DNA of 64,000 nucleotides from Ulva prolifera (Eukaryota > Chlorophyta > Ulvophyceae > Ulvales > Ulvaceae), in the NCBI GenBank assembly GCA_023078555.1, contig CM041199.1:10403943-10467942 (forward strand), in the 5' to 3' direction. A program made the position numbers and the translations under genes. Positions 1-64,000 of this stretch are shown in pieces (positions within the stretch are counted from its first letter, which is position 1; the number at the start of each line of letters is the position of its first letter). The notes below the pieces were generated by a model. That model saw nothing but the letters and a program-made list of their open reading frames with translations. It had not been told where the DNA came from and searched no databases.

Positions 1-43
1 GTGGTGTGGTGCAAAAGTGCACACTTTCCACCAACCCATGTGA
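1..43 (+). repeat. Partial A-class monomer at the left edge
   Basis: The window opens inside the second half of an A monomer, at the GTGGTGTGGTGC segment, and the next monomer begins at 44. The array therefore extends upstream of the window. Confidence 0.97.
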
Positions 44-66
44 ATGGACTTGGTTGTAGCCACGCA

Positions 67-121
67 ACCCCCCGCGCATCAAAAGGTACGTCGCCATGAA
101 CATTCCAAGATGTTGGGGGGT
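67..121. other. C-run/G-run inverted repeat spanning the monomer front
   Basis: ACCCCCC at 67-73 is complementary to GGGGGGT at 115-121 across a 41-base loop. The arrangement recurs in A, many B and D monomers. GTTGGAGGG, GTTAGGGGG and five-C forms weaken it. Whether the stem forms is unknown. Confidence 0.5.
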
Positions 122-179
122 ATGGGATGATTATCATTCATTGCATATTTGCTGCTGACTCCCAGGAGTGGCGTGGGGC

Positions 180-195
180 AAAAGTGCACACTTTT
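180..195. other. 16-bp near-palindrome AAAAGTG-CA-CACTTTT in class B/C
   Basis: B and C monomers have a 7-bp inverted repeat around a CA centre. In class A and D the arms are 6 bp, because the right arm ends CTTTCC. A subset of A monomers with AAAAATGCACAC breaks the dyad on one side. It is the one symmetric element common to all four classes. Confidence 0.75.
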
Positions 196-654
196 CACCA
201 ACCATGTGAATGGACTTGGTTGTAGCCACGCAACCCCCCGCGCATCAAAAGGTACGTCGCCATGAACATTCCAAGATGTGGGGGGGTATGGGATGATTAT
301 CATTCATTGCATATTTGCTGCTGACTCCCAGGAGTGGCGTGGGGCAAAAGTGCACACTTTTCACCAACCATGTGAATGGACTTGGTTGTAGCCACGCAAC
401 CCCCCGCGCATCAAAAGGTACGTCGCCATGAACATTCCAAGATGTTGGAGGGTATGGGATGATTATCATTCATTGCATATTTGCTGCTGACTCCCGGGAG
501 TGGCGTGGGGCAAAAGTGCACACTTTTCACCAACCTTGTGAATGGACTTGGCTATAGACAAGCATACCCCCGCGCACCATAGGGAAGTTGCCAGAAACAT
601 CCTTTGATTCTGAAAGATCTAGGACGTCAAGTATGCATTGCACAGTTGTTGCTA

Positions 655-666
655 ACTCCTAGGAGT
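655..666. other. 12-bp palindrome ACTCCTAGGAGT (AvrII) in a class C monomer
   Basis: It is a perfect palindrome in many C monomers. The related forms are ACTCCCGGGAGT (also perfect, SmaI, zone I B monomers, for example 490-501) and ACTCCCAGGAGT (two-base centre, most B monomers). A few copies read ACTCCCAAGAGT. Dyad symmetry is kept in most variants although the centre changes. Confidence 0.75.
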
Positions 667-986
667 GGCGTGGAACAAAAGTGCACACTTTTCACCAACC
701 ATGTGAATGGACTTGGTTGTAGCCACGCAACCCCCCGCGCAGCAAAAGGTACGTCGCCATCAACATTCCAAGATTTTGGGGGGTATGGGATGTCCATCAT
801 TCATTGCGTATTTTCTGCAGACACCATGGCGTGGTGTGGTGCAAAAGTGCACATTTTCCACCAACCCATGTGAATGGACTTGGTTGTACCCACGCACCCC
901 CTGCGCATCAAAAGGTACGTCGCCATCAACATTCCAAGATGTTGGGGGGTGTGGGATGTCCATCATTCATTGCGTATTTTCTGCAG

Positions 987-2704: not shown

Positions 2705-2870
2705 ATGGACTTGGTTGTAGCCACGCAACCCCCCGCGCATCAAAAGGTACGTCGCCATGAACATTCCAAGATGTTGGGGGGTATGGGATGATTATCATTC
2801 ATTGCATATTTGCTGCTGACTCCCAGGAGTGGCGTGGGGCAAAAGTGCACACTTTTCACCAACCATGTGA
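2705..2870 (+). repeat. Class B monomer (representative), 166 bp, no PstI site
   Basis: The front half matches class A, but the rear half is distinct. It has TGATTATC in place of TGTCCATC, TTGCATATTTGCTGCTG in place of the PstI segment, then ACTCCCAGGAGT, GGCGTGGGGC and CACTTTTCACCAACC, with one base fewer before ATGTGAATGG. B monomers usually come in pairs; the second member often has GTTGGAGGG instead of a six-G run and leads directly into a C monomer. In zone I this second member carries CCCGGG (SmaI), at 493, 2988, 4820, 7652, 10818 and 14318. In zone II it often reads TTGCACATTTG. Confidence 0.95.
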
Positions 2871-3036
2871 ATGGACTTGGTTGTAGCCACGCAACCCCCC
2901 GCGCATCAAAAGGTACGTCGCCATGAACATTCCAAGATGTTGGAGGGTATGGGATGATTATCATTCATTGCATATTTGCTGCTGACTCCCGGGAGTGGCG
3001 TGGGGCAAAAGTGCACACTTTTCACCAACCTTGTGA

Positions 3037-3201
3037 ATGGACTTGGCTATAGACAAGCATACCCCCGCGCACCATAGGGAAGTTGCCAGAAACATCCTTT
3101 GATTCTGAAAGATCTAGGACGTCAAGTATGCATTGCACAGTTGTTGCTAACTCCTAGGAGTGGCGTGGAACAAAAGTGCACACTTTTCACCAACCATGTG
3201 A
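3037..3201 (+). repeat. Class C monomer (representative), 165 bp, diverged BglII landmark
   Basis: The front half is the most diverged in the array: GGCTATAGACAAGCATAC, CACCATAGGGAAG, TTTGATTCTGAAAGATCT (BglII) and ACGTCAAGTATGCATTGC. The rear half then rejoins the B-like ACTCCTAGGAGT or ACTCCCAGGAGT, GGCGTGGAAC and CACTTTTCACC. I count 51 copies, starting at 542, 1373, 3037, 4869, 5868, 7701, 8700, 10867, 11865, 14365, 15347, 16179, 17512, 17843, 18508, 19339, 20172, 21003, 21835, 22166, 23497, 24329, 25162, 25993, 26825, 27156, 28487, 29319, 29983, 30481, 31145, 34972, 36136, 36634, 37799, 38297, 39128, 40294, 40792, 41623, 44286, 44784, 45615, 49777, 53939, 56102, 57266, 60095, 61928, 62426 and 63256. 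Each follows a B-type end, and the next monomer nearly always has a CGCAGC-type front. Confidence 0.95.
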
Positions 3202-3714
3202 ATGGACTTGGTTGTAGCCACGCAACCCCCCGCACAGCAAAAGGTACGTCGCCATCAACATTCCAAGATTTTGGGGGGTATGGGATGTCCATCATTCATT
3301 GCGTATTTTCTGCAGACACCATGGCGTGGTGTGGTGCAAAAGTGCACATTTTCCACCAACCCATGTGAATGGACTTGGTTGTACCCACGCACCCCCTGCG
3401 CATCAAAAGGTACGTCGCCATCAACATTCCAAGATGTTGGGGGGTATGGGATGTCCATCATTCATTGCGTATTTTCTGCAGACACCATGGAGTGGTGTGG
3501 TGCAAAAGTGCACACTTTCCACCAACCCATGTGAATGGACTTGGTTGTAGCCACGCAACCCCCCGCGCATCAAAAGGTACGTCCCCATGAACATTCCAAG
3601 ATGTTGGGGGGTATGGGATGTCCATCATCCATTGCGTATTTTCTGCAGACACCATGGAGTGGTGTGGTGCAAAAGTGCACACTTTCCACCAACCCATGTG
3701 AATGGACTTGGTTG

Positions 3715-6700
3715 TAGCCACGCAACCCCCCGCGCATCAAAAGGTACGTCGACATGAACATTCCAAGATGTTGGGGGGTATGGGATGTCCATCATTCATT
3801 GCGTATTTTCTGCAGACACCATGGCGTGGTGTGGTGCAAAAGTGCACACTTTCCACCAACCCATGTGAATGCACTTGGTTGTAGCCACGCAACCCCCCGC
3901 GCATCAAAAGGTACGTCGCCATGAACATTCAAAGATGTTGGGGGGTATGGGATGTCCATCATTCATTGCGTATTTTCTGCAGACACCATGGCGTGGTGTG
4001 GTGCAAAAATGCACACTTTCCACCAACCCATGTGAATGGACTTGGTTGTAGCCACGCAACCCCCCGCGCATCAAAAGGTACGTCGCCATGAACATTCAAA
4101 GATGTTGGGGGGTATGAGATGTCCATCATTCATTGCGTATTTTCTGCAGACACCATGGAGTGGTGTGGTGCAAAAATGCACACTTTCCACCAACCCATGT
4201 GAATGGACTTGGTTGTAGCCACGCAACCACCCGCGCAGCAAAAGGTACGTTGCCATCAACATTCCAAGATGTTGGGGGGTATGGGATGTCCATCATTCAT
4301 TGCGTATTTTCTGCAGACACCATGGCGTGGTGTGGTGCAAAAGTGTACACTTTCCACCAACCCATGTGAATGGACTTGGTTGTAGCCACGCAACCCCCCG
4401 CGCATCAAAAGGTACATCGCCATCAACATTCCAAGATGTTGGGGGGTATGGGATGTCCATCATTCATTGCGTATTTTCTGCAGACACCATGGAGTGGTGT
4501 GGTGCAAAAGTGCACACTTTCCACCAACCCATGTGAATGGACTTGGTTGTAGCCACGCAACCCCCCGCGCATCAAAAGGTACGTCGCCATGAACATTCCA
4601 AGATGTTGGGGGGTATGGGATGATTATCATTCATTGCATATTTGCTGCTGACTCCCAGGAGTGGCGTGGGGCAAAAGTGCACACTTTTCACCAACCATGT
4701 GAATGGACTTGGTTGTAGCCACGCAACCCCCCGCGCATCAAAAGGTACGTCGCCATGAACATTCCAAGATGTTGGAGGGTATGGGATGATTATCATTCAT
4801 TGCATATTTGCTGCTGACTCCCGGGAGTGGCGTGGGGCAAAAGTGCACACTTTTCACCAACCTTGTGAATGGACTTGGCTATAGACAAGCATACCCCCGC
4901 GCACCATAGGGAAGTTGCCAGAAACATCCTTTGATTCTGAAAGATCTAGGACGTCAAGTATGCATTGCACAGTTGTTGCTAACTCCTAGGAGTGGCGTGG
5001 AACAAAAGTGCACACTTTTCACCAACCATGTGAATGGACTTGGTTGTAGCCACGCAACCCCCCGCGCAGCAAAAGGTACGTTGCCATCAACATTCCAAGA
5101 TGTTGGGGGGTATGGGATGTCCATCATTCATTGCGTATTTTCTGCAGACACCATGGCGTGGTGTGGTGCAAAAGTGTACACTTTCCACCAACCCATGTGA
5201 ATGGACTTGGTTGTAGCCACGCAACCCCCCGCGCATCAAAAGGTACATCGCCATCAACATTCCAAGATGTTGGGGGGTATGGGATGTCCATCATTCATTG
5301 CGTATTTTCTGCAGACACCATGGAGTGGTGTGGTGCAAAAGTGCACACTTTCCACCAACCCATGTGAATGGACTTGGTTGTAGCCACGCAACCCCCCGCG
5401 CATCAAAAGGTACGTCCCCATGAACATTCAAAGATGTTGGGGGGTATGGGATGTCCATCATTCATTGCGTATTTTCTGCAGACACCATGGAGTGGTGTGG
5501 TGCAAAAGTGCACACTTTCCACCAACCCATGTGAATGGACTTGGTTGTAGCCACGCAACCCCCCGCGCATCAAAAGGTACGTCCCCATGAACATTCCAAG
5601 ATGTTGGGGGGTATGGGATGTCCATCATCCATTGCGTATTTTCTGCAGACACCATGGAGTGGTGTGGTGCAAAAGTGCACACTTTCCACCAACCCATGTG
5701 AATGGACTTGGTTGTAGCCACGCAACCCCCCGCGCATCAAAAGGTACGTCGCCATGAACATTCCAAGATGTTGTGGGGTATGGGATGATTATCATTCATT
5801 GCATATTTGCTGCTGACTCCCAGGAGTGGCGTGGGGCAAAAGTGCACACTTTTCACCAACCTTGTGAATGGACTTGGCTATAGACAAGCATACCCCCGCG
5901 CACCATAGGGAAGTTGCCAGAAACATCCTTTGATTCTGAAAGATCTAGGACGTCAAGTATGCATTGCACAGTTGTTGCTAACTCCTAGGAGTGGCGTGGA
6001 ACAAAAGTGCACACTTTTCACCAACCATGTGAATGGACTTGGTTGTAGCCACGCAACCCCCCGCGCAGCAAAAGGTACGTCGCCATCAACATTCCAAGAT
6101 TTTGGGGGGTATGGGATGTCCATCATTCATTGCGTATTTTCTGCAGACACCATGGCGTGGTGTGGTGCAAAAGTGCACATTTTCCACCAACCCATGTGAA
6201 TGGACTTGGTTGTACCCACGCAACCCCCCGCGCATCAAAAGGTACGTCCCCATGAACATTCCAAGATGTTGGGGGGTATGGGATGTCCATCATCCATTGC
6301 GTATTTTCTGCAGACACCATGGAGTGGTGTGGTGCAAAAGTGCACACTTTCCACCAACCCATGTGAATGGACTTGGTTGTAGCCACGCAACCCCCCGCGC
6401 ATCAAAAGGTACGTCGACATGAACATTCCAAGATGTTGGGGGGTATGGGATGTCCATCATTCATTGCGTATTTTCTGCAGACACCATGGCGTGGTGTGGT
6501 GCAAAAGTGCACACTTTCCACCAACCCATGTGAATGCACTTGGTTGTAGCCACGCAACCCCCCGCGCATCAAAAGGTACGTCGACATGAACATTCCAAGA
6601 TGTTGGGGGGTATGGGATGTCCATCATTCATTGCGTATTTTCTGCAGACACCATGGCGTGGTGTGGTGCAAAAGTGCACACTTTCCACCAACCCATGTGA

Positions 6701-9700
6701 ATGCACTTGGTTGTAGCCACGCAACCCCCCGCGCATCAAAAGGTACGTCGCCATGAACATTCAAAGATGTTGGGGGGTATGGGATGTCCATCATTCATTG
6801 CGTATTTTCTGCAGACACCATGGCGTGGTGTGGTGCAAAAATGCACACTTTCCACCAACCCATGTGAATGGACTTGGTTGTAGCCACGCAACCCCCCGCG
6901 CATCAAAAGGTACGTCGCCATGAACATTCAAAGATGTTGGGGGGTATGAGATGTCCATCATTCATTGCGTATTTTCTGCAGACACCATGGAGTGGTGTGG
7001 TGCAAAAATGCACACTTTCCACCAACCCATGTGAATGGACTTGGTTGTAGCCACGCAACCACCCGCGCAGCAAAAGGTACGTTGCCATCAACATTCCAAG
7101 ATGTTGGGGGGTATGGGATGTCCATCATTCATTGCGTATTTTCTGCAGACACCATGGCGTGGTGTGGTGCAAAAGTGTACACTTTCCACCAACCCATGTG
7201 AATGGACTTGGTTGTAGCCACGCAACCCCCCGCGCATCAAAAGGTACATCGCCATCAACATTCCAAGATGTTGGGGGGTATGGGATGTCCATCATTCATT
7301 GCGTATTTTCTGCAGACACCATGGAGTGGTGTGGTGCAAAAGTGCACACTTTCCACCAACCCATGTGAATGGACTTGGTTGTAGCCACGCAACCCCCCGC
7401 GCATCAAAAGGTACGTCGCCATGAACATTCCAAGATGTTGGGGGGTATGGGATGATTATCATTCATTGCATATTTGCTGCTGACTCCCAGGAGTGGCGTG
7501 GGGCAAAAGTGCACACTTTTCACCAACCATGTGAATGGACTTGGTTGTAGCCACGCAACCCCCCGCGCATCAAAAGGTACGTCGCCATGAACATTCCAAG
7601 ATGTTGGAGGGTATGGGATGATTATCATTCATTGCATATTTGCTGCTGACTCCCGGGAGTGGCGTGGGGCAAAAGTGCACACTTTTCACCAACCTTGTGA
7701 ATGGACTTGGCTATAGACAAGCATACCCCCGCGCACCATAGGGAAGTTGCCAGAAACATCCTTTGATTCTGAAAGATCTAGGACGTCAAGTATGCATTGC
7801 ACAGTTGTTGCTAACTCCTAGGAGTGGCGTGGAACAAAAGTGCACACTTTTCACCAACCATGTGAATGGACTTGGTTGTAGCCACGCAACCCCCCGCGCA
7901 GCAAAAGGTACGTTGCCATCAACATTCCAAGATGTTGGGGGGTATGGGATGTCCATCATTCATTGCGTATTTTCTGCAGACACCATGGCGTGGTGTGGTG
8001 CAAAAGTGTACACTTTCCACCAACCCATGTGAATGGACTTGGTTGTAGCCACGCAACCCCCCGCGCATCAAAAGGTACATCGCCATCAACATTCCAAGAT
8101 GTTGGGGGGTATGGGATGTCCATCATTCATTGCGTATTTTCTGCAGACACCATGGAGTGGTGTGGTGCAAAAGTGCACACTTTCCACCAACCCATGTGAA
8201 TGGACTTGGTTGTAGCCACGCAACCCCCCGCGCATCAAAAGGTACGTCCCCATGAACATTCAAAGATGTTGGGGGGTATGGGATGTCCATCATTCATTGC
8301 GTATTTTCTGCAGACACCATGGAGTGGTGTGGTGCAAAAGTGCACACTTTCCACCAACCCATGTGAATGGACTTGGTTGTAGCCACGCAACCCCCCGCGC
8401 ATCAAAAGGTACGTCCCCATGAACATTCCAAGATGTTGGGGGGTATGGGATGTCCATCATCCATTGCGTATTTTCTGCAGACACCATGGAGTGGTGTGGT
8501 GCAAAAGTGCACACTTTCCACCAACCCATGTGAATGGACTTGGTTGTAGCCACGCAACCCCCCGCGCATCAAAAGGTACGTCGCCATGAACATTCCAAGA
8601 TGTTGTGGGGTATGGGATGATTATCATTCATTGCATATTTGCTGCTGACTCCCAGGAGTGGCGTGGGGCAAAAGTGCACACTTTTCACCAACCTTGTGAA
8701 TGGACTTGGCTATAGACAAGCATACCCCCGCGCACCATAGGGAAGTTGCCAGAAACATCCTTTGATTCTGAAAGATCTAGGACGTCAAGTATGCATTGCA
8801 CAGTTGTTGCTAACTCCTAGGAGTGGCGTGGAACAAAAGTGCACACTTTTCACCAACCATGTGAATGGACTTGGTTGTAGCCACGCAACCCCCCGCGCAG
8901 CAAAAGGTACGTCGCCATCAACATTCCAAGATTTTGGGGGGTATGGGATGTCCATCATTCATTGCGTATTTTCTGCAGACACCATGGCGTGGTGTGGTGC
9001 AAAAGTGCACATTTTCCACCAACCCATGTGAATGGACTTGGTTGTACCCACGCAACCCCCCGCGCATCAAAAGGTACGTCCCCATGAACATTCCAAGATG
9101 TTGGGGGGTATGGGATGTCCATCATCCATTGCGTATTTTCTGCAGACACCATGGAGTGGTGTGGTGCAAAAGTGCACACTTTCCACCAACCCATGTGAAT
9201 GGACTTGGTTGTAGCCACGCAACCCCCCGCGCATCAAAAGGTACGTCGACATGAACATTCCAAGATGTTGGGGGGTATGGGATGTCCATCATTCATTGCG
9301 TATTTTCTGCAGACACCATGGCGTGGTGTGGTGCAAAAGTGCACACTTTCCACCAACCCATGTGAATGCACTTGGTTGTAGCCACGCAACCCCCCGCGCA
9401 TCAAAAGGTACGTCGCCATGAACATTCAAAGATGTTGGGGGGTATGGGATGTCCATCATTCATTGCGTATTTTCTGCAGACACCATGGCGTGGTGTGGTG
9501 CAAAAGTGCACACTTTCCACCAACCCATGTGAATGCACTTGGTTGTAGCCACGCAACCCCCCGCGCATCAAAAGGTACGTCGCCATGAACATTCAAAGAT
9601 GTTGGGGGGTATGGGATGTCCATCATTCATTGCGTATTTTCTGCAGACACCATGGCGTGGTGTGGTGCAAAAATGCACACTTTCCACCAACCCATGTGAA

Positions 9701-9987
9701 TGGACTTGGTTGTAGCCACGCAACCCCCCGCGCATCAAAAGGTACGTCGCCATGAACATTCAAAGATGTTGGGGGGTATGAGATGTCCATCATTCATTGC
9801 GTATTTTCTGCAGACACCATGGAGTGGTGTGGTGCAAAAATGCACACTTTCCACCAACCCATGTGAATGGACTTGGTTGTAGCCACGCAACCACCCGCGC
9901 AGCAAAAGGTACGTTGCCATCAACATTCCAAGATGTTGGGGGGTATGGGATGTCCATCATTCATTGCGTATTTTCTGCAGACACCAT
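3715..9987 (+). repeat. HOR-I: 2832-bp (17-monomer) higher-order repeat, about 2.2 copies
   Basis: Variant patterns recur at an offset of exactly 2832 bp. C monomers at 4869, 5868, 7701 and 8700 pair as 4869/7701 and 5868/8700. The run 3715-7155 matches 6547-9987 subtype by subtype, including ATGCACTTGG anchors, ATGAGATG fronts and GTTGTGGGG at 5702/8534. Differences I noticed lie in one monomer: 6534 has GTCGACATGAACATTCC where its partner at 9366 has GTCGCCATGAACATTCA. Each unit contains C monomers separated alternately by about 999 and 1833 bp. The low divergence points to recent amplification of the whole 17-mer. Confidence 0.9.
4370..4536 (+). repeat. Class A monomer (representative), 167 bp, PstI/NcoI type
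   Basis: This is the commonest class. In order it has the ATGGACTTGG anchor, TTGTAGCCACGCAA followed by six C, GCGCATCAAAAGG, a variable TACRTC segment, a six-G run, TGTCCATC, TTGCGTATTTT, CTGCAG (PstI), CCATGG (NcoI) and the GTGCACAC dyad. Front subtypes are set by a few bases: TACATCGCCATCAAC (this one), TACGTCCCCATG, TACGTCGACATG, TACGTCGCCATG and CGCAGCAAAAGG. Rear subtypes differ at CCATGG-A/C-GTGG, at GTGT-GG/GA/AA-TGC and at GTGCAC versus GTGTAC. A rarer 165-166 bp front has TTGTACCCACGCA and only five C (for example 874, 3369, 33142, 43454). Confidence 0.95.
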
Positions 9988-10200
9988 GGAGTGGTGTGGT
10001 GCAAAAGTGCACACTTTCCACCAACCCATGTGAATGGACTTGGTTGTAGCCACGCAACCCCCCGCGCATCAAAAGGTACGTCCCCATGGACATTCAAAGA
10101 TGTTGGGGGGTATGGGATGTCCATCATCCATTGCGTATTTTCTGCAGACACCATGGAGTGGTGTGGTGCAAAAATGCACACTTTCCACCAACCCATGTGA
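9867..10200 (+). repeat. Two-monomer (334 bp) insertion in HOR-I
   Basis: The second HOR-I copy follows the first until 9867. The sequence equivalent to 7035 then occurs both at 9867 (offset 2832) and at 10201 (offset 3166). The added 334 bp consist of a CGCAGC-front monomer and a monomer with TACGTCCCCATGGACATT. It fits an unequal crossover out of register by two monomers. The next C landmark at 10867 is shifted by the same amount. Confidence 0.85.
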
Positions 10201-21800: not shown

Positions 21801-21834
21801 GGGCAAAAGTGCACACTTTTCACCAACCTTGTGA

Positions 21835-38403: not shown

Positions 38404-41400
38404 TTGCTAACTCCCAGGAGTGGCGTGGAACAAAAGTGCACACTTTTCACCAACCATGTGAATGGACTTGGTTGTAGCCACGCAACCCCCCGCGTAGCAA
38501 AAGGTACGTTGCCATCAACATTCCAAGATGTTGGGGGGTATGGGATGTCCATCATTCATTGCGTATTTTCTGCAGACACCATGGAGTGGTGTGGTGCAAA
38601 AGTGTACACTTTCCACCAACCCATGTGAATGGACTTGGTTGTAGCCACGCAACCCCCCGCGCATCAAAAGGTACATCGCCATCAACATTCCAAGATGTTG
38701 GGGGGTATGGGATCTCCATCATTCATTGCGTATTTTCTGCAGACACCATGGAGTGGTGTGGTGCAAAAGTGCACACTTTCCACCAACCCATGTGAATGGA
38801 CTTGGTTGTAGCCACGCAACCCCCCGCGCATCAAAAGGTACGTCGCCATGAACATTCCAAGATGTTAGGGGGTATGGGATGATTATCATTCATTGCATAT
38901 TTGCTGCTGACTCCCAGGAGTGGCGTGGGGCAAAAGTGCACACTTTTCACCAACCATGTGAATGGACTTGGTTGTAGCCACGCAACCCCCCGCGCATCAA
39001 AAGGTACGTCGCCATGAACATTCCAAGATGTTGGAGGGTATGGGATGATTATCATTCATTGCATATTTGCTGCTGACTCCCAGGAGTGGCGTGGGGCAAA
39101 AGTGCACACTTTTCACCAACCTTGTGAATGGACTTGGCTATAGACAAGCATACCCCCGCGCACCATAGGGAAGTTGCCAGAAACATCCTTTGATTCTGAA
39201 AGATCTAGGACGTCAAGTATGCATTGCACAGTTGTTGCTAACTCCCAGGAGTGGCGTGGAACAAAAGTGCACACTTTTCACCAACCATGTGAATGGACTT
39301 GGTTGTAGCCACGCAACCCCCCGCGCAGCAAAAGGTACGTTGCCATCAACATTCAAAGATGTTGGGGGGTATGGGATGTCCATCATTCATTGCGTATTTT
39401 CTGCAGACACCATGGAGTGGTGTGGTGCAAAAGTGTACACTTTCCACCAACCCATGTGAATGGACTTGGTTGTAGCCACGCAACCCCCCGCGCATCAAAA
39501 GGTACATCGCCATCAACATTCCAAGATGTTGGGGGGTATGGGATCTCCATCATTCATTGCGTATTTTCTGCAGACACCATGGAGTGGTGTGGTGCAAAAG
39601 TGCACACTTTCCACCAACCCATGTGAATGGACTTGGTTGTAGCCACGCAACCCCCCGCGCATCAAAAGGTACGTCCCCATGAACATTCAAAGATGTTGGG
39701 GGGTATGGGATGCCCATCGTCCATTGCGTATTTTCTGCAGACACCATGGAGTGGTGTGGTGCAAAAGTGCACACTTTCCACCAACCCATGTGAATGGACT
39801 TGGTTGTAGCCACGCAACCCCCCGCGCATCAAAAGGTACGTCCCCATGAACATTCAAAGATGTTGGGGGGTATGGGATGTCCATCATCCATTGCGTATTT
39901 TCTGCAGACACCATGGAGTGGTGTGGTGCAAAAGTGTACACTTTCCACCAACCCATGTGAATGGACTTGGTTGTAGCCACGCAACCCCCCGCGCATCAAA
40001 AGGTACATCGCCATCAACATTCCAAGATGTTGGGGGGTATGGGATGTCCATCATTCATTGCGTATTTTCTGCAGACACCATGGAGTGGTGTGGTGCAAAA
40101 GTGCACACTTTCCACCAACCCATGTGAATGGACTTGGTTGTAGCCACGCAACCCCCCGCGCATCAAAAGGTACGTCGCCATGAACATTCCAAGATGTTGG
40201 GGGGTATGGGATGATTATCATTCATTGCATATTTGCTGCTGACTCCCAGGAGTGGCGTGGGGCAAAAGTGCACACTTTTCACCAACCTTGTGAATGGACT
40301 TGGCTATAGACAAGCATACCCCCGCGCACCATAGGGAAGTTGCCAGAAACATCCTTTGATTCTGAAAGATCTAGGACGTCAAGTATGCATTGCACAGTTG
40401 TTGCTAACTCCTAGGAGTGGCGTGGAACAAAAGTGCACACTTTTCACCAACCATGTGAATGGACTTGGTTGTAGCCACGCAACCCCCCGCGCAGCAAAAG
40501 GTACGTCGCCATCAACATTCCAAGATGTTGGAGGGTATGGGATGTCCATCATTCATTGCGTATTTTCTGCAGACACCATGGAGTGGTGTAATGCAAAAGT
40601 GCACACTTTCCACCAACCCATGTGAATGGACTTGGTTGTAGCCACGCAACCCCCCGCGCATGAAAAGGTGCGTCGCCATGAACATTCCAAGATGTTGGGG
40701 GGTATGGGATGATTATCATTCATTGCATATTTGCTGCTGACTCCCAGGAGTGGCGTGGGGCAAAAGTGCACACTTTTCACCAACCATGTGAATGGACTTG
40801 GCTATAGACAAGCATACCCCCGCGCACCATAGGGAAGTTGCCAGAAACATCCTTTGATTCTGAAAGATCTAGGACGTCAAGTATGCATTGCACAGTTGTT
40901 GCTAACTCCCAGGAGTGGCGTGGAACAAAAGTGCACACTTTTCACCAACCATGTGAATGGACTTGGTTGTAGCCACGCAACCCCCCGCGTAGCAAAAGGT
41001 ACGTTGCCATCAACATTCCAAGATGTTGGGGGGTATGGGATGTCCATCATTCATTGCGTATTTTCTGCAGACACCATGGAGTGGTGTGGTGCAAAAGTGT
41101 ACACTTTCCACCAACCCATGTGAATGGACTTGGTTGTAGCCACGCAACCCCCCGCGCATCAAAAGGTACATCGCCATCAACATTCCAAGATGTTGGGGGG
41201 TATGGGATCTCCATCATTCATTGCGTATTTTCTGCAGACACCATGGAGTGGTGTGGTGCAAAAGTGCACACTTTCCACCAACCCATGTGAATGGACTTGG
41301 TTGTAGCCACGCAACCCCCCGCGCATCAAAAGGTACGTCGCCATGAACATTCCAAGATGTTAGGGGGTATGGGATGATTATCATTCATTGCATATTTGCT

Positions 41401-41865
41401 GCTGACTCCCAGGAGTGGCGTGGGGCAAAAGTGCACACTTTTCACCAACCATGTGAATGGACTTGGTTGTAGCCACGCAACCCCCCGCGCATCAAAAGGT
41501 ACGTCGCCATGAACATTCCAAGATGTTGGAGGGTATGGGATGATTATCATTCATTGCATATTTGCTGCTGACTCCCAGGAGTGGCGTGGGGCAAAAGTGC
41601 ACACTTTTCACCAACCTTGTGAATGGACTTGGCTATAGACAAGCATACCCCCGCGCACCATAGGGAAGTTGCCAGAAACATCCTTTGATTCTGAAAGATC
41701 TAGGACGTCAAGTATGCATTGCACAGTTGTTGCTAACTCCCAGGAGTGGCGTGGAACAAAAGTGCACACTTTTCACCAACCATGTGAATGGACTTGGTTG
41801 TAGCCACGCAACCCCCCGCGCAGCAAAAGGTACGTTGCCATCAACATTCAAAGATGTTGGGGGGT
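37050..41865 (+). repeat. 2495-bp (15-monomer) tandem repeat
   Basis: About 37050-39370 matches 39545-41865 at an offset of 2495 bp. C pairs are 37799/40294, 38297/40792 and 39128/41623. Shared private markers are CGCGTAGC (38494, 40989) and GGGATCTCC (38711, 41206). The match ends where 39371 reads GGGATG and the partner reads GAGATG. This block overlaps the 1663-bp and 3992-bp repeats, so the periods are nested rather than sequential. Confidence 0.87.
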
Positions 41866-44800
41866 ATGAGATGTCCATCATTCATTGCGTATTTTCTGCA
41901 GACACCATGGAGTGGTGTAATGCAAAAGTGCACACTTTCCACCAACCCATGTGAACGGACTTGGTTGCAGCCACGCAACCCCCCGCACATCAAAGGTACG
42001 ACTACATGAATATTCCAAGATGTTGGGGGGTATGGGATGTCCATCATTCATTGCGTATTTTCTGCAGACACCATGGAGTGGTGTAATGCAAAAGTGCACA
42101 CTTTCCACCAACCCATGTGAACGGACTTGGTTGCAGCCTCGCAACCCCCCGCACATCAAAGGTACGACTACATGAACATTCCAAGATGTTGGGGGGCATG
42201 GGATGTCCATCATTCATTGCGTATTTTCTGCAGACACCATGGAGTGGTGTGGTGCAAAAGTGCACACTTTCCACCAACCCATGTGAATGGACTTGGTTGT
42301 AGCCACGCAACCCCCCGCGCATCAAAAGGTACGTCGACATGAACATTCAAAGATGTTGGGGGGTATGGGATGTCCATCATTCATTGCGTATTTTCTGCAG
42401 ACACCATGGAGTGGTGTAATGCAAAAGTGCACACTTTCCACCAACCCATGTGAACGGACTTGGTTGCAGCCACGCAACCCCCCGCACATCAAAGGTACGA
42501 TGACATGAACATTCCAAGATGTTGGGGGGTATGGGATGTCCATCATTCATTGCGTATTTTCTGCAGACACCATGGAGTGGTGTAATGCAAAAGTGCACAC
42601 TTTCCACCAACCCATGTGAACGGACTTGGTTGCAGCCACGCAACCCCCCGCACATCAAAGGTACGACTACATGAACATTCCAAGATGTTGGGGGGCATGG
42701 GATGTCCATCATTCATTGCGTATTTTCTGCAGACACCATGGAGTGGTGTGGTGCAAAAGTGCACACTTTCCACCAACCCATGTGAATGGACTTGGTTGTA
42801 GCCACGCAACCCCCCGCGCATCAAAAGGTACGTCGACATGAACATTCAAAGATCTTGGGGGGTATGGGATGTCCATCATTCATTGCGTATTTTCTGCAGA
42901 CACCATGGCGTGGTGTGGTGCAAAAGTGCACACTTTCCACCAACCCATGTGAATGGACTTGGTTGTAGCCACGCAACCCCCCGCGCATCAAAAGGTACGT
43001 CGCCATGAACATTCAAAGATGTTGGGGGGTATGAGATGTCCATCATTCATTGCGTATTTTCTGCAGACACCATGGAGTGGTGTGGTGCAAAAATGCACAC
43101 TTTCCACCAACCCATGTGAATGGACTTGGTTGTAGCCACGCAACCCCCCGCGCAGCAAAAGGTACGTTGCCATCAACATTCCAAGATGTTGGGGGGTATG
43201 GGATGTCCATCATTCATTGCGTATTTTCTGCAGACACCATGGCGTGGTGTGGTGCAAAAGTGCACACTTTCCACCAACCCATGTGAATGGACTTGGTTGT
43301 AGCCACGCAACCCCTCGCGCATCAAAAGGTACATCGCCATCAACATTCCAAGATGTTGGGGGGTATGGGATGTCCATCATTCATTGCGTATTTTCTGCAG
43401 ACACCATGGAGTGGTGTGGTGCAAAAGTGCACATTTTCCACCAACCCATGTGAATGGACTTGGTTGTACCCACGCACCCCCTGCGCATCAAAAGGTACGT
43501 CGCCATCAACATTCCAAGATGTTGGGGGTATGGGATGTCCATCATTCATTGCGTATTTTCTGCAGACACCATGGAGTGGTGTGGTGCAAAAGTGCACACT
43601 TTCCACCAACCCATGTGAATGGACTTGGTTGTAGCCACGCAACCCCCCGCGCATCAAAAGGTACGTCCCCATGAACATTCAAAGATGTTGGGGGGTATGG
43701 GATGTCCATCGTCCATTGCGTATTTTCTGCAGACACCATGGAGTGGTGTGGTGCAAAAGTGCACACTTTCCACCAACCCATGTGAATGGACTTGGTTGTA
43801 GCCACGCAACCCCCCGCGCATCAAAAGGTACGTCCCCATGAACATTCAAAGATGTTGGGGGGTATGGGATGTCCATCATCCATTGCGTATTTTCTGCAGA
43901 CACCATGGAGTGGTGTGGTGCAAAAGTGTACACTTTCCACCAACCCATGTGAATGGACTTGGTTGTAGCCACGCAACCCCCCGCGCATCAAAAGGTACAT
44001 CGCCATCAACATTCCAAGATGTTGGGGGGTATGGGATGTCCATCATTCATTGCGTATTTTCTGCAGACACCATGGAGTGGTGTGGTGCAAAAGTGCACAC
44101 TTTCCACCAACCCATGTGAATGGACTTGGTTGTAGCCACGCAACCCCCCGCGCATCAAAAGGTACGTCGCCATGAACATTCCAAGATGTTGGGGGGTATG
44201 GGATGATTATCATTCATTGCATATTTGCTGCTGACTCCCAGGAGTGGCGTGGGGCAAAAGTGCACACTTTTCACCAACCTTGTGAATGGACTTGGCTATA
44301 GACAAGCATACCCCCGCGCACCATAGGGAAGTTGCCAGAAACATCCTTTGATTCTGAAAGATCTAGGACGTCAAGTATGCATTGCACAGTTGTTGCTAAC
44401 TCCTAGGAGTGGCGTGGAACAAAAGTGCACACTTTTCACCAACCATGTGAATGGACTTGGTTGTAGCCACGCAACCCCCCGCGCAGCAAAAGGTACGTCG
44501 CCATCAACATTCCAAGATGTTGGAGGGTATGGGATGTCCATCATTCATTGCGTATTTTCTGCAGACACCATGGAGTGGTGTAATGCAAAAGTGCACACTT
44601 TCCACCAACCCATGTGAATGGACTTGGTTGTAGCCACGCAACCCCCCGCGCATGAAAAGGTGCGTCGCCATGAACATTCCAAGATGTTGGGGGGTATGGG
44701 ATGATTATCATTCATTGCATATTTGCTGCTGACTCCCAGGAGTGGCGTGGGGCAAAAGTGCACACTTTTCACCAACCATGTGAATGGACTTGGCTATAGA

Positions 44801-47422
44801 CAAGCATACCCCCGCGCACCATAGGGAAGTTGCCAGAAACATCCTTTGATTCTGAAAGATCTAGGACGTCAAGTATGCATTGCACAGTTGTTGCTAACTC
44901 CCAGGAGTGGCGTGGAACAAAAGTGCACACTTTTCACCAACCATGTGAATGGACTTGGTTGTAGCCACGCAACCCCCCGCGTAGCAAAAGGTACGTTGCC
45001 ATCAACATTCCAAGATGTTGGGGGGTATGGGATGTCCATCATTCATTGCGTATTTTCTGCAGACACCATGGAGTGGTGTGGTGCAAAAGTGTACACTTTC
45101 CACCAACCCATGTGAATGGACTTGGTTGTAGCCACGCAACCCCCCGCGCATCAAAAGGTACATCGCCATCAACATTCCAAGATGTTGGGGGGTATGGGAT
45201 CTCCATCATTCATTGCGTATTTTCTGCAGACACCATGGAGTGGTGTGGTGCAAAAGTGCACACTTTCCACCAACCCATGTGAATGGACTTGGTTGTAGCC
45301 ACGCAACCCCCCGCGCATCAAAAGGTACGTCGCCATGAACATTCCAAGATGTTAGGGGGTATGGGATGATTATCATTCATTGCATATTTGCTGCTGACTC
45401 CCAGGAGTGGCGTGGGGCAAAAGTGCACACTTTTCACCAACCATGTGAATGGACTTGGTTGTAGCCACGCAACCCCCCGCGCATCAAAAGGTACGTCGCC
45501 ATGAACATTCCAAGATGTTGGAGGGTATGGGATGATTATCATTCATTGCATATTTGCTGCTGACTCCCAGGAGTGGCGTGGGGCAAAAGTGCACACTTTT
45601 CACCAACCTTGTGAATGGACTTGGCTATAGACAAGCATACCCCCGCGCACCATAGGGAAGTTGCCAGAAACATCCTTTGATTCTGAAAGATCTAGGACGT
45701 CAAGTATGCATTGCACAGTTGTTGCTAACTCCCAGGAGTGGCGTGGAACAAAAGTGCACACTTTTCACCAACCATGTGAATGGACTTGGTTGTAGCCACG
45801 CAACCCCCCGCGCAGCAAAAGGTACGTTGCCATCAACATTCAAAGATGTTGGGGGGTATGAGATGTCCATCATTCATTGCGTATTTTCTGCAGACACCAT
45901 GGAGTGGTGTAATGCAAAAGTGCACACTTTCCACCAACCCATGTGAACGGACTTGGTTGCAGCCACGCAACCCCCCGCACATCAAAGGTACGACTACATG
46001 AATATTCCAAGATGTTGGGGGGTATGGGATGTCCATCATTCATTGCGTATTTTCTGCAGACACCATGGAGTGGTGTAATGCAAAAGTGCACACTTTCCAC
46101 CAACCCATGTGAACGGACTTGGTTGCAGCCTCGCAACCCCCCGCACATCAAAGGTACGACTACATGAACATTCCAAGATGTTGGGGGGCATGGGATGTCC
46201 ATCATTCATTGCGTATTTTCTGCAGACACCATGGAGTGGTGTGGTGCAAAAGTGCACACTTTCCACCAACCCATGTGAATGGACTTGGTTGTAGCCACGC
46301 AACCCCCCGCGCATCAAAAGGTACGTCGACATGAACATTCAAAGATGTTGGGGGGTATGGGATGTCCATCATTCATTGCGTATTTTCTGCAGACACCATG
46401 GAGTGGTGTAATGCAAAAGTGCACACTTTCCACCAACCCATGTGAACGGACTTGGTTGCAGCCACGCAACCCCCCGCACATCAAAGGTACGATGACATGA
46501 ACATTCCAAGATGTTGGGGGGTATGGGATGTCCATCATTCATTGCGTATTTTCTGCAGACACCATGGAGTGGTGTAATGCAAAAGTGCACACTTTCCACC
46601 AACCCATGTGAACGGACTTGGTTGCAGCCACGCAACCCCCCGCACATCAAAGGTACGACTACATGAACATTCCAAGATGTTGGGGGGCATGGGATGTCCA
46701 TCATTCATTGCGTATTTTCTGCAGACACCATGGAGTGGTGTGGTGCAAAAGTGCACACTTTCCACCAACCCATGTGAATGGACTTGGTTGTAGCCACGCA
46801 ACCCCCCGCGCATCAAAAGGTACGTCGACATGAACATTCAAAGATCTTGGGGGGTATGGGATGTCCATCATTCATTGCGTATTTTCTGCAGACACCATGG
46901 CGTGGTGTGGTGCAAAAGTGCACACTTTCCACCAACCCATGTGAATGGACTTGGTTGTAGCCACGCAACCCCCCGCGCATCAAAAGGTACGTCGCCATGA
47001 ACATTCAAAGATGTTGGGGGGTATGAGATGTCCATCATTCATTGCGTATTTTCTGCAGACACCATGGAGTGGTGTGGTGCAAAAATGCACACTTTCCACC
47101 AACCCATGTGAATGGACTTGGTTGTAGCCACGCAACCCCCCGCGCAGCAAAAGGTACGTTGCCATCAACATTCCAAGATGTTGGGGGGTATGGGATGTCC
47201 ATCATTCATTGCGTATTTTCTGCAGACACCATGGCGTGGTGTGGTGCAAAAGTGCACACTTTCCACCAACCCATGTGAATGGACTTGGTTGTAGCCACGC
47301 AACCCCTCGCGCATCAAAAGGTACATCGCCATCAACATTCCAAGATGTTGGGGGGTATGGGATGTCCATCATTCATTGCGTATTTTCTGCAGACACCATG
47401 GAGTGGTGTGGTGCAAAAGTGC
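39620..47422 (+). repeat. HOR-III: 3992-bp (24-monomer) repeat, two near-identical copies
   Basis: About 39620-43430 matches 43612-47422 at an offset of 3992 bp. C pairs are 40294/44286, 40792/44784 and 41623/45615. D runs pair as 41955/45947 and 42454/46446. Private markers shared by both copies include GAATATTCC, GCAGCCTCGC, AAGATCTTGG (an extra BglII site) and CCCCTCGCGC. The only difference I noticed is C at 39713 versus T at 43705. Divergence begins where 43431 continues CACATTTTCC and the partner CACACTTTCC. Confidence 0.9.
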
Positions 47423-59758: not shown

Positions 59759-60259
59759 GTGAATGGACTTGGTTGTAGCCACGCAACCCCCCGCGCATCA
59801 AAAGGTACGTCGCCATGAACATTCCAAGATGTTGGGGGGTATGGGATGATTATCATTCATTGCATATTTGCTGCTGACTCCCAGGAGTGGCGTGGGGCAA
59901 AAGTGCACACTTTTCACCAACCATGTGAATGGACTTGGTTGTAGCCACGCAACCCCCCGCGCATCAAAAGGTACGTCGCCATGAACATTCCAAGATGTTG
60001 GAGGGTATGGGATGATTATCATTCATTGCATATTTGCTGCTGACTCCCAGGAGTGGCGTGGGGCAAAAGTGCACACTTTTCACCAACCTTGTGAATGGAC
60101 TTGGCTATAGACAAGCATACCCCCGCGCACCATAGGGAAGTTGCCAGAAACATCCTTTGATTCTGAAAGATCTAGGACGTCAAGTATGCATTGCACAGTT
60201 GTTGCTAACTCCTAGGAGTGGCGTGGAACAAAAGTGCACACTTTTCACCAACCATGTGA
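59759..60259 (+). repeat. B-B-C module
   Basis: Two B monomers (59763, 59929, the second with GTTGGAGGG) are followed by a C monomer at 60095. This is the standard B-B-C module seen throughout the array. Confidence 0.9.
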
Positions 60260-61095
60260 ATGGACTTGGTTGTAGCCACGCAACCCCCCGCGCAGCAAAA
60301 GGTACGTCGCCATCAACATTCCAAGATTTTGGGGGGTATGGGATGTCCATCATTCATTGCGTATTTTTCTGCAGACACCATGGCGTGGTGTGGTGCAAAA
60401 GTGCACACTTTCCACCAACCCATGTGAATGGACTTGGTTGTAGCCACGCAACCCCCCGCGCAGCAAAAGGTACATCGCGATCAACATTCCAAGATGTTGG
60501 GGGGTATGGGATGTCCATCATTCATTGCGTATTTTCTGCAGACACCATGGCGTGGTGTGGTGCAAAAGTGCACACTTTCCACCAACCCATGTGAATGGAC
60601 TTGGTTGTAGCCACGCAACCCCCCGCGCATCAAAAGGTACGTCGCCATGAACATTCCAAGATGTTGGGGGGTATGGGATGATTATCATTCATTGCATATT
60701 TGCTGCTGACTCCCAGGAGTGGCGTGGAACAAAAGTGCACACTTTTCAGCAACCATGTGAATGGACTTGGTTGTAGCCACGCAACCCCCCGCGCAGCAAA
60801 AGGTACGTCGCCATCAACATTCCAAGATTTTGGGGGGTATGGGATGTCCATCATTCATTGCGTATTTTTCTGCAGACACCATGGCGTGGTGTGGTGCAAA
60901 AGTGCACACTTTCCACCAACCCATGTGAATGGACTTGGTTGTAGCCACGCAACCCCCCGCGCAGCAAAAGGTACATCGCGATCAACATTCCAAGATGTTG
61001 GGGGGTATGGGATGTCCATCATTCATTGCGTATTTTCTGCAGACACCATGGCGTGGTGTGGTGCAAAAGTGCACATTTTCCACCAACCCATGTGA
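60260..61095 (+). repeat. 501-bp (3-monomer) duplication marked by a T insertion
   Basis: 60260-60594 is repeated at 60761-61095. Both copies have GATTTTGGGG, five T in GTATTTTTCTGCAG instead of four, and TACATCGCGATCAAC in place of TACATCGCCATCAAC. These markers appear nowhere else that I can see. The B/C hybrid monomer 60595-60760 sits between the copies and replaces a full C monomer. Confidence 0.88.
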
Positions 61096-61761
61096 ATGGA
61101 CTTGGTTGTACCCACGCACCCCCTGCGCATCAAAAGGTACGTCGCCATCAACATTCCAAGATGTTGGGGGTATGGGATGTCCATCATTCATTGCGTATTT
61201 TCTGCAGACACCATGGAGTGGTGTGGTGCAAAAGTGCACACTTTCCACCAACCCATGTGAATGGACTTGGTTGTAGCCACGCAACCCCCCGCGCATCAAA
61301 AGGTACGTCCCCATGAACATTCAAAGATGTTGGGGGGTATGGGATGTCCATCGTCCATTGCGTATTTTCTGCAGACACCATGGAGTGGTGTGGTGCAAAA
61401 GTGCACACTTTCCACCAACCCATGTGAATGGACTTGGTTGTAGCCACGCAACCCCCCGCGCATCAAAAGGTACGTCCCCATGAACATTCAAAGATGTTGG
61501 GGGGTATGGGATGTCCATCATCCATTGCGTATTTTCTGCAGACACCATGGAGTGGTGTGGTGCAAAAGTGTACACTTTCCACCAACCCATGTGAATGGAC
61601 TTGGTTGTAGCCACGCAACCCCCCGCGCATCAAAAGGTACATCGCCATCAACATTCCAAGATGTTGGGGGGTATGGGATGTCCATCATTCATTGCGTATT
61701 TTCTGCAGACACCATGGAGTGGTGTGGTGCAAAAGTGCACACTTTCCACCAACCCATGTGA
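61096..61761 (+). repeat. A-class run with five-C and CATCGTCC monomers
   Basis: The order five-C front (61096), CATCGTCC (61261), CATCATCC with GTGTAC (61428) and TACATC (61595) is the same as at 35304-35969 and 43454-44119. It is the same module reused in a new context. Confidence 0.86.
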
Positions 61762-62757
61762 ATGGACTTGGTTGTAGCCACGCAACCCCCCGCGCATCAA
61801 AAGGTACGTCGCCATGAACATTCCAAGATGTTTGGGGGTATGGGATGATTATCATTCATTGCATATTTGCTGCTGACTCCCAGGAGTGGCGTGGGGCAAA
61901 AGTGCACACTTTTCACCAACCTTGTGAATGGACTTGGCTATACACAAGCATACCCCCGCGCACCATAGGGAAGTTGCCAGAAACATCCTTTGATTCTGAA
62001 AGATCTAGGACGTCAAGTATGCATTGCACAGTTGTTGCTAACTCCTAGGAGTGGCGTGGAACAAAAGTGCACACTTTTCACCAACCATGTGAATGGACTT
62101 GGTTGTAGCCACGCAACCCCCCGCGCAGCAAAAGGTACGTCGCCATCAACATTCCAAGATGTTGGAGGGTATGGGATGTCCATCATTCATTGCGTATTTT
62201 CTGCAGACACCATGGAGTGGTGTAATGCAAAAGTGCACACTTTCCACCAACCCATGTGAATGGACTTGGTTGTAGCCACGCAACCCCCCGCGCATCAAAA
62301 GGTACGTCGCCATGAACATTCCAAGATGTTTGGGGGTATGGGATGATTATCATTCATTGCATATTTGCTGCTGACTCCCAGGAGTGGCGTGGGGCAAAAG
62401 TGCACACTTTTCACCAACCTTGTGAATGGACTTGGCTATACACAAGCATACCCCCGCGCACCATAGGGAAGTTGCCAGAAACATCCTTTGATTCTGAAAG
62501 ATCTAGGACGTCAAGTATGCATTGCACAGTTGTTGCTAACTCCCAGGAGTGGCGTGGAACAAAAGTGCACACTTTTCACCAACCATGTGAATGGACTTGG
62601 TTGTAGCCACGCAACCCCCCGCGCAGCAAAAGGTACGTTGCCATCAACATTCCAAGATGTTGGGGGGTATGGGATGTCCATCATTCATTGCGTATTTTCT
62701 GCAGACACCATGGAGTGGTGTGGTGCAAAAGTGTACACTTTCCACCAACCCATGTGA
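61762..62757 (+). repeat. 498-bp (3-monomer) tandem duplication with private markers
   Basis: The B monomers at 61762 and 62260 both read GTTTGGGGG. The C monomers at 61928 and 62426 both read CTATACACAAGC, with C at 61943 and 62441 where every other C monomer has G. The 498-bp spacing matches the B-C-A module also seen at 36136-36633, 37799-38296, 40294-40791 and 44286-44783. Confidence 0.89.
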
Positions 62758-63919
62758 ATGGACTTGGTTGTAGCCACGCAACCCCCCGCGCATCAAAAGG
62801 TACATCGCCATCAACATTCCAAGATGTTGGGGGGTATGGGATGTCCATCATTCATTGCGTATTTTCTGCAGACACCATGGAGTGGTGTGGTGCAAAAGTG
62901 CACACTTTCCACCAACCCATGTGAATGGACTTGGTTGTAGCCACGCAACCCCCCGCGCATCAAAAGGTACGTCGCCATGAACATTCCAAGATGTTAGGGG
63001 GTATGGGATGATTATCATTCATTGCATATTTGCTGCTGACTCCCAGGAGTGGCGTGGGGCAAAAGTGCACACTTTTCACCAACCATGTGAATGGACTTGG
63101 TTGTAGCCACGCAACCCCCCGCGCATCAAAAGGTAGTCGCCATGAACATTCCAAGATGTTGGAGGGTATGGGATGATTATCATTCATTGCATATTTGCTG
63201 CTGACTCCCAGGAGTGGCGTGGGGCAAAAGTGCACACTTTTCACCAACCTTGTGAATGGACTTGGCTATAGACAAGCATACCCCCGCGCACCATAGGGAA
63301 GTTGCCAGAAACATCCTTTGATTCTGAAAGATCTAGGACGTCAAGTATGCATTGCACAGTTGTTGCTAACTCCCAGGAGTGGCGTGGAACAAAAGTGCAC
63401 ACTTTTCACCAACCATGTGAATGGACTTGGTTGTAGCCACGCAACCCCCCGCGCAGCAAAAGGTACGTTGCCATCAACATTCAAAGATGTTGGGGGGTAT
63501 GAGATGTCCATCATTCATTGCGTATTTTCTGCAGACACCATGGAGTGGTGTAATGCAAAAGTGCACACTTTCCACCAACCCATGTGAACGGACTTGGTTG
63601 CAGCCACGCAACCCCCCGCACATCAAAGGTACGACTACATGAACATTCCAAGATGTTGGGGGGTATGGGATGTCCATCATTCATTGCGTATTTTCTGCAG
63701 ACACCATGGAGTGGTGTAATGCAAAAGTGCACACTTTCCACCAACCCATGTGAACGGACTTGGTTGCAGCCACGCAACCCCCCGCACATCAAAGGTACGA
63801 CTACATGAACATTCCAAGATGTTGGGGGGCATGGGATGTCCATCATTCATTGCGTATTTTCTGCAGACACCATGGAGTGGTGTGGTGCAAAAGTGCACAC
63901 TTTCCACCAACCCATGTGA
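62758..63919 (+). repeat. Right-end stretch: B-B-C then D run
   Basis: A TACATC monomer, a GTTAGGGGG B monomer (62925), a GTTGGAGGG B monomer (63091) and a C monomer (63256) are followed by ATGAGATG and two D monomers (63588, 63754). The order matches 31145-31808 and 41623-42286. A single base is missing near 63136 (GGTAGTCGCC for GGTACGTCGCC). Confidence 0.87.
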
Positions 63920-64000
63920 ATGGACTTGGTTGTAGCCACGCAACCCCCCGCGCATCAAAAGGTACGTCGACATGAACATTCAAAGATGTTGGGGGGTATG
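63920..64000 (+). repeat. Partial monomer at the right edge
   Basis: The last monomer has the GTCGACATG front and breaks off in GGGGGGTATG, about 81 bases in. There is no sign of the array ending; it continues downstream. Confidence 0.97.

What the first reader, a model, noticed from the sequence alone, without database searches (positions are those of the whole stretch)
1..64000. Unrecognised 167-bp satellite with four monomer classes and nested HORs
The sequence shows a pure array of about 384 monomers in one orientation, organised by four classes into multi-kilobase HORs. HORs of this complexity are well known in primate alpha satellite but less often described for other satellites. I do not recognise this family. 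Centromeric identity is inference.
Basis: partly seen in the sequence, partly recalled or inferred. Interest (0 to 1): 0.75.

Follow-up and report, generated by a model that had tools for sequence, protein, structure and literature searches.

The report
Single-chromosome 167-bp satellite, locally duplicated blocks
The window is part of a roughly million-base tandem repeat that appears to sit on only one scaffold of a small, probably green-algal genome; it grows by copying local blocks of repeats, it lies beside several other tandem repeats, and it may or may not be the chromosome's centromere.

Summary
In detail: all 64 kb is one tandem array of a 167-bp unit (384 full monomers, one orientation, no insertion). 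The organisation needs correcting. The 'four classes' are two monomer cores combined with two junction haplotypes. The 'HORs' are local, irregularly spaced block copies: 10-monomer blocks recur at most 5 times in 172 kb, strictly tandem units at about 2-3 copies. No single HOR was seen running through the sampled array, unlike human alpha satellite.

Outside the window, the array spans C4:10,095,527-11,177,225 (about 1.08 Mb) of an 88.9-Mb, 44-contig genome and stops at a gap near the scaffold end. A 24-mer allowing 3 mismatches occurs 6250 times genome-wide, all forward; the C4 array alone predicts 6435, so the family is essentially single-locus. Samples over the preceding ~1.4 Mb of C4 show five other kinds of tandem repeat; one (62 bp) also occurs near the end of C8.

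Best reading: a chromosome-specific satellite in a large heterochromatic block, shaped by local unequal exchange. Centromere function is possible but untested; sequence does not separate 'centromere' from 'satellite block'. New member of a known kind.

The parts
1..64000 (+). Part of a ~1.08-Mb array of the 167-bp satellite (C4:10,403,943-10,467,942 of C4:10,095,527-11,177,225); 384 full monomers, head to tail
   Evidence: TRF; segmentation; genome placement; array limits
510..674 (+). Example of the divergent 165-bp core type C (50 of 384 window monomers at the 5% cut; 68-74% identical to the consensus of the other large classes)
2839..10000 (+). Local block duplication: 17-monomer unit (2830 bp), ~2.5 copies, 99.6% identity
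18309..29451 (+). Local block duplication: 30-monomer unit (4990 bp), ~2.2 copies, 99.8% identity; shorter lag-10 and lag-15 copies lie inside or overlap it (nesting)
37099..41921 (+). Local block duplication: 15-monomer unit, ~1.9 copies, 99.9% identity; its 14-monomer block recurs again at window 43,586 and 61,228
39594..47412 (+). Local block duplication: 24-monomer unit (3992 bp), ~2 copies, 99.97% identity
48081..54736 (+). Local block duplication: 25-monomer unit (4162 bp), ~1.6 copies, 99.9% identity
14980..26000 (+). 66-monomer stretch (end approximate) that recurs at C4:11,152,793 (734 kb away) at 99.7% identity; either a long-range duplication or an alternative-haplotype contig placed at the scaffold end

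Best explanation
It is a nucleosome-length satellite confined, as far as counts show, to one chromosome. It forms about 1.08 Mb of a tandem-repeat-rich region of about 2.5 Mb at one end of scaffold C4, most likely constitutive, (peri)centromere-like heterochromatin. SHOWN: two old monomer types (consensus about 70% identical, sharing a conserved first ~45 columns) are mixed, with the switch points at the monomer junctions, which gives the four apparent classes. Blocks of several to about 30 monomers have been copied locally, leaving patches of near-identical blocks and no array-wide HOR in the parts sampled. INFERRED: the mixing by exchange, the copying step (unequal sister-chromatid exchange or break-induced replication), the heterochromatic state, and the place at or near the centromere. 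CENH3 loading is possible but has no direct evidence.
For: One scaffold, one orientation: 24-mer with up to 3 mismatches 6250 forward, 0 reverse in 88.9 Mb, list starting at C4:10,095,542; 14-mer 5509 forward, 0 reverse. From 260,219 sampled array bases the C4 array alone predicts 6435 and 5466. Block copies. Identical-monomer rate is 3.8% at lags 10-19 and 0.13% at lags 640-979. Mosaic: 228 of 234 C cores have C-type junctions on both sides, against 159 of 1300 A cores. Satellite-rich surroundings: tandem units in 11 of 14 600-bp samples run through TRF at C4:9.0-10.12 Mb; 49-bp unit at 8.6 Mb; 62-bp family from 8,749,057; 19-bp family from 9,660,317, 3516 forward, 0 reverse. Two divergent H3 variants are encoded.
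Against: The chromatin state is unknown. The right side of the array is a 5-kb N gap followed by 1377 bp, so a subtelomeric place is not excluded. Sequence between samples of the block was not read, and C4:10.06-10.095 Mb is not tandem where sampled. No edge-to-core divergence gradient was seen, with only 7 monomers from the very edge. Part of the near-identity over distance (the last ~25 kb) may be an assembly or haplotype effect. Five-monomer blocks recur up to 22 times, so some grouping is more than two- or threefold.
Confidence: 0.6

Rival explanations
1. The array is the functional CENH3-bound centromere of this chromosome, with a chromosome-specific satellite; other chromosomes use other sequences.
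For: Nucleosome-length unit, ~1.08 Mb, one orientation, recent local homogenisation. The scaffold breaks off at its end. The genome encodes divergent H3 variants. Precedent by title: PMC4628103, sunflower 'chromosome-specific tandem repeat' (listing and abstract start).
Against: Five other kinds of tandem repeat, one seen over ~0.34 Mb of samples, lie next to it on C4. No place was listed on C1-C3 and the count leaves little for other scaffolds. No CENP-B-box-like motif (best 3 mismatches of 9, motif recalled), though most centromeres lack one (recalled). In the green algae read about, Chlorella and Chlamydomonas, centromeres are transposon-rich (passages).
Confidence: 0.3
2. Subtelomeric or chromosome-end satellite: the end of C4 is a true chromosome arm end made of stacked satellites.
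For: The array reaches to within ~6.4 kb of the scaffold end. A variant of the 62-bp family of the same region lies ~57 kb from the end of C8, in the same orientation relative to the scaffold end, as exchange between non-homologous chromosome ends would give.
Against: No exact TTTAGGG x3 anywhere and no three-unit TTAGGG/TTTAGGG/TTTTAGGG run at a scaffold end; the only two, overlapping, hits are at C2:7.2 Mb. Samples 50-60 kb from both ends of C1, C5, C6 and C8 showed a tandem repeat in 1 of 8, C8's right end (175 bp each). The C4 end is an N gap plus a transposon piece.
Confidence: 0.25
3. Assembly effect: the size or the block duplications are inflated by haplotype contigs or mis-joined copies.
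For: 5-kb N gap at 11,177,226-11,182,225 and a 209-N gap at 11,164,517; the last ~25 kb repeats segments of C4:10.39-10.43 Mb at 98-99.8% in another order; all 8 singleton classes at the 5% cut fall in window ~13.3-16.0 kb, as an unpolished patch would.
Against: Satellite identity, orientation and the two-core mosaic do not depend on it; block copies at many different lags occur in both sampled stretches.
Confidence: 0.1

Closest known systems
Arabidopsis CEN178/CEN180-type plant centromere satellites (recalled)
   Same: Nucleosome-length monomer, long one-orientation array, local low-copy repeated blocks rather than an array-wide HOR
   Different: No sequence relation tested; here the family is, by count, on a single scaffold instead of all chromosomes, and CENH3 binding is unknown
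Primate alpha satellite (recalled)
   Same: Monomer of similar length (171 v 167), several monomer classes, multi-monomer blocks
   Different: No array-wide HOR in the parts sampled; no CENP-B-box-like motif
Chromosome-specific tandem repeat of sunflower centromeres (PMC4628103; listing and abstract start only)
   Same: By its title, a tandem repeat that is chromosome-specific
   Different: There the title places the repeat in centromeres; here no such link exists
Transposon-based green-algal centromeres: Chlorella sorokiniana/pyrenoidosa (PMC11005252) and Chlamydomonas ZeppL (PMC8226300) (passages)
   Same: Probable host lineage (green); divergent H3 variants that could be CENH3
   Different: Those centromeres are transposon clusters (28-104 kb in C. 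sorokiniana) and the Chlorella ones lack tandem satellites; here ~1.08 Mb of satellite
Salicaceae tandem arrays (PMC12046899, passages)
   Same: HOR blocks in short satellites; species- and chromosome-specific turnover
   Different: A figure legend in the section on non-centromeric arrays also plots HOR blocks (Palv148), a warning against reading HORs as centromere proof

Membership tests
Satellite DNA (general) | Long head-to-tail array of a non-coding unit | tested here: met
   167 is not a multiple of 3, and the 54 ORFs of 110 aa or more are at most 184 aa and on both strands
Primate-type HOR satellite (alpha) | One multi-monomer unit repeated array-wide at high identity | tested here: not met
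   13 different tandem units at 1.9-2.9 copies, 411 of 980 monomers; ten-monomer blocks recur at most 5 times; sampled parts only (about 260 kb of 1.08 Mb)
Primate-type HOR satellite (alpha) | CENP-B box (NTTCGNNNNANNCGGGN, recalled) | tested here: not met
   at least 3 mismatches of 9 fixed sites in either core consensus, both strands
Primate-type HOR satellite (alpha) | Sequence identity to the alpha consensus | not tested
   No Dfam or Repbase access; the genome is 88.9 Mb, too small for a primate
Plant CEN-type centromere satellite | CENH3 occupancy | not testable with these tools
   no chromatin data
Plant CEN-type centromere satellite | Family shared by most chromosomes of the genome | tested here: not met
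   all hits forward, list starting at C4:10,095,542, counts as expected for C4 alone; contigs after C4 could not be listed one by one; chromosome-specific exceptions exist
Plant CEN-type centromere satellite | Local HOR blocks and identity falling with distance (recalled) | tested here: met
Subtelomeric satellite | Adjacent to telomere repeats | tested here: inconclusive
   no TTAGGG-type run at a scaffold end; the C4 end is a gap and a transposon piece
TE-derived green-algal centromere | Dense LINE or Copia elements | tested here: inconclusive
   Sampled array is satellite with few insertions. Three ORFs of one insertion gave no Pfam family at its cut-off, but that insertion has direct terminal repeats and a 4-bp target duplication, which an LTR element would also show; other scaffolds not examined

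The most novel reading that the evidence does not exclude
In a green alga, a lineage whose described centromeres are transposon clusters, one chromosome carries a megabase satellite-type centromere with a private, nucleosome-length repeat that arose and was homogenised on that chromosome alone, amid a stack of other tandem repeats.
Probability: 0.15. Interest if true: 0.7.

Novelty: new member of a known kind. Interest (0 to 1): 0.4.

Why it matters
If the host is a green alga, a one-chromosome, megabase, nucleosome-length satellite is unlike the transposon-rich algal centromeres I read about (passages). It would let one ask whether satellite centromeres arise independently and on one chromosome at a time. 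Even if it is only heterochromatin, the array is a clean record of how a satellite grows: two old monomer types mixed at their junctions, then local copying of blocks of one to several kilobases.

Tried and rejected
Array-wide HOR: rejected for the sampled parts. Gene or RNA content: no Rfam match in window 1-6000 at the gathering threshold; ORFs only short, repeated and on both strands. Unusual single-strand folding of the A-core monomer: z -1.19, 25 of 200 shuffles fold as well, rejected as a feature. Dyads: arms of 6-7 bases, e.g. AAAAGTG-CA-CACTTTT in the C consensus (the C result was wrong because the script assumed 167 bases), not pursued. AT-dinucleotide periodicity: among periods of 5-60 bases the strongest peaks are harmonics 4, 3, 5 and 12 of the unit, not a ~10-base signal. 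Edge decay of the array: not seen (7 edge monomers). Organism name: the Rfam 18S request did not complete; RuBisCO large subunit gave 0 candidates, so no plastid contig appears to be held; literature searches by size and lineage did not identify it. The green-lineage guess rests on an H2A ending SQDF and on H2A and H2B sequence compared with recalled sequences; the solved-structure search for H2B lists mainly human and other animal histones and does not decide it. Monomers dropped before counts: 12 anchors that bound no interval of 120-215 bases (1563 anchors, 1551 monomers).
Full report
WHAT IS IN THE WINDOW. TRF reads the whole 64 kb as one array of period 167 with 384.7 copies and 89% matches. 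Anchored segmentation gives 384 full monomers: 204 of 167 bp, 110 of 166, 63 of 165 and 7 of other lengths; 129 sequences are distinct. The word GTGAATGGACTTGG occurs 341 times forward and 0 times reverse. In the contiguous stretch around the window, non-satellite insertions of 60 bp or more occur only outside it.

CLASSES. Over 1551 monomers from the window and fetched array stretches, splitting each unit into a core (columns 46-126) and a junction (last 37 plus first 28 columns) gives two cores (1314, 236; 1 other) and two junction haplotypes (908, 633; 1 other; 1542 junctions). C cores have C-type junctions on both sides in 228 of 234 cases; A cores have C-type on both sides in 159, on one side in 482, on neither in 658, and one odd, of 1300. 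So classes B and D are largely A cores with a C-type junction on one side or the other, as exchange between two old monomer types would give. The Fisher value treats copies as independent and is not a real probability. The two core consensuses agree at 87-100% per 15-column bin in columns 1-45 and at 53-80% over columns 46-165. This may be constraint or conversion; I cannot tell which.

BLOCKS, NOT AN ARRAY-WIDE HOR. In the window, repeated runs of monomers at over 97% identity reach 37 monomers at lag 30 and number 50 at length 8 or more; shuffles and Markov simulations reach at most 15 monomers and 29 runs. In the 980 monomers of C4:10,300,001-10,472,000 there are 13 strictly tandem multi-monomer units, at 1.88-2.88 copies, covering 411 monomers. 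Counting copies at any spacing, 369 of 971 ten-monomer blocks recur, at most 5 times (for example C4:10,326,152, 10,328,816, 10,331,480, 10,334,812 and 10,339,980), and five-monomer blocks recur in 747 of 976 cases, up to 22 times. The sampled right part (11.09-11.18 Mb) shows 11 tandem units of 6-21 monomers at 1.95-2.79 copies, and 137 of 507 ten-monomer blocks recur, at most 3 times. The share of identical monomer pairs is 3.8% at lags 10-19 and 0.13% at lags 640-979. This looks like growth by local block copying. Nesting is real: lag-10 and lag-15 copies lie inside or overlap the lag-30 block. A 66-monomer stretch starting at C4:10,418,922 recurs at 11,152,793 (99.7%), near gaps at the scaffold end; long-range duplication and a misplaced haplotype contig both fit.

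THE ARRAY IN ITS GENOME. The window is C4:10,403,943-10,467,942 of an 88,887,114-base, 44-contig genome; C4 is 11,183,602 bases. The array starts at about 10,095,527 with a sharp edge and ends at 11,177,225 in a 5000-N gap, after which 1377 bp of a dispersed 3.8-kb element close the scaffold. In the sampled parts three non-satellite insertions were met (two read in full) plus a 209-N gap; one search places four more copies of one of them in unsampled parts. A 24-mer with up to 3 mismatches is found 6250 times forward and 0 times reverse in the whole genome, and the 100 places listed start at C4:10,095,542; the 14-mer 5509 times forward, 0 reverse. Density over 260,219 sampled array bases predicts 6435 and 5466 for the C4 array, so little or nothing is left for other scaffolds. 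The list seems to run in contig order, so C1-C3 should be empty; places on contigs after C4 could not be listed, and for them this rests on the counts and the absence of reverse hits. Copies that differ at more than 3 of those 24 positions would be missed.

NEIGHBOURS. TRF found tandem units in 11 of 14 600-bp samples (of 20 fetched; one was all N and five lay in the array) between 9.0 and 10.12 Mb: 62-bp, 53/65-bp, 178-192-bp composites of a 14-mer, and a 19-bp unit. A 49-bp unit is at 8.6 Mb; none was seen at 0.05, 6.5 or 8.0 Mb of C4 (175-bp samples cannot show units above about 85 bp). The five look different by eye; they were not aligned. The 19-bp family counts 3516 forward, 0 reverse, from 9,660,317. 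The 62-bp family counts 1834 forward, 0 reverse, from 8,749,057, and a variant lies at C8:6.07 Mb; 15 of 16 samples on C1, C5, C6 and C8 showed no tandem repeat. A hAT transposase (PF04937, PF05699) lies just left of the array in a stretch that is not tandem where sampled. So, with the 167-bp array, six kinds of tandem repeat were met over about 2.5 Mb; the sequence between samples was not read.

HOST. Eleven histone match places, a lower bound, some split as by introns, an H2A ending SQDF and H2B/H2A of plant/green-algal look suggest the green lineage, more likely chlorophyte; this is a comparison with recalled sequences. Two divergent H3 variants exist: L013 (C4:901.5-902.0 kb, basic N-terminus, one extra residue against H3 in the alignment) and L011 (C5:7.03 Mb, longer loop). 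Either could be CENH3.

HOW IT MOST LIKELY WORKS. Shown: two-type mosaic, local block copies, one orientation, counts that fit one locus. Inferred: exchange between the two types; unequal sister exchange or break-induced replication as the copying step; heterochromatin; a place at or near the centromere. A satellite block of this kind is compatible with a centromere, with pericentromeric heterochromatin and with a chromosome end; sequence alone does not choose. In PMC12046899 (passages) a figure legend in the section on non-centromeric arrays also plots HOR blocks.

NOVELTY. No text match to 5 monomer words in the open library. Literature searches for green-algal satellites and centromeres, HORs and 167-bp satellites listed nothing that I could tie to this family; they cover open-access full text only, I read passages of four papers, and Dfam/Repbase were out of reach. 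I file it as a new member of a known kind.

Noticed in passing
C4:8.6-10.0 Mb (L040-L050, L083): Stack of other tandem repeats (49-, 62-, 53/65-, 178-192- and 19-bp units) upstream of the window's array; the 19-bp and 62-bp words counted are all in one orientation.
   Followed up: partly
L079 = C8:6,070,001-6,070,175: A variant of C4's 62-bp satellite lies near the right end of C8, same orientation; hints at exchange between scaffold ends.
   Followed up: no
C4:10,384,913-10,388,731 (L028) and 10,536,703; 10,644,397; 10,912,666; 11,033,852: A dispersed 3.8-kb element (also on C1, C2, C3, C5, C6, C7, C9, both strands overall) occurs five times inside the array, always + and reported at 100% identity, one copy partial: repeated insertion, or one insertion carried along by very large duplications.
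   Followed up: partly
C4:10,345,911-10,350,519 (L024/L025): 4.6-kb insertion with inverted ends (17 bases), a CAAG target duplication (read by eye) and two identical 759-bp direct terminal repeats; three ORFs gave no Pfam family at its cut-off.
   Followed up: partly
window ~13,300-16,000: All 8 singleton monomer classes at the 5% cut (indels, 150- and 161-bp monomers) cluster here: a seam between homogenised domains or a poorly polished patch.
   Followed up: no
C4:11,151,600-11,177,225: The last ~25 kb of the array repeats pieces of C4:10.39-10.43 Mb in another order around a 209-N gap; possible haplotype contigs placed at the scaffold end.
   Followed up: partly
L011 (C5:7,027,706) and L013 (C4:901,805): Two divergent H3 variants; either may be the CENH3 needed for a ChIP test.
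   Followed up: partly
C4:10,090,499-10,092,643 (L060): hAT-type transposase ORFs in the non-tandem stretch just left of the array (the 489-aa one matches Pfam, the 209-aa one does not).
   Followed up: partly
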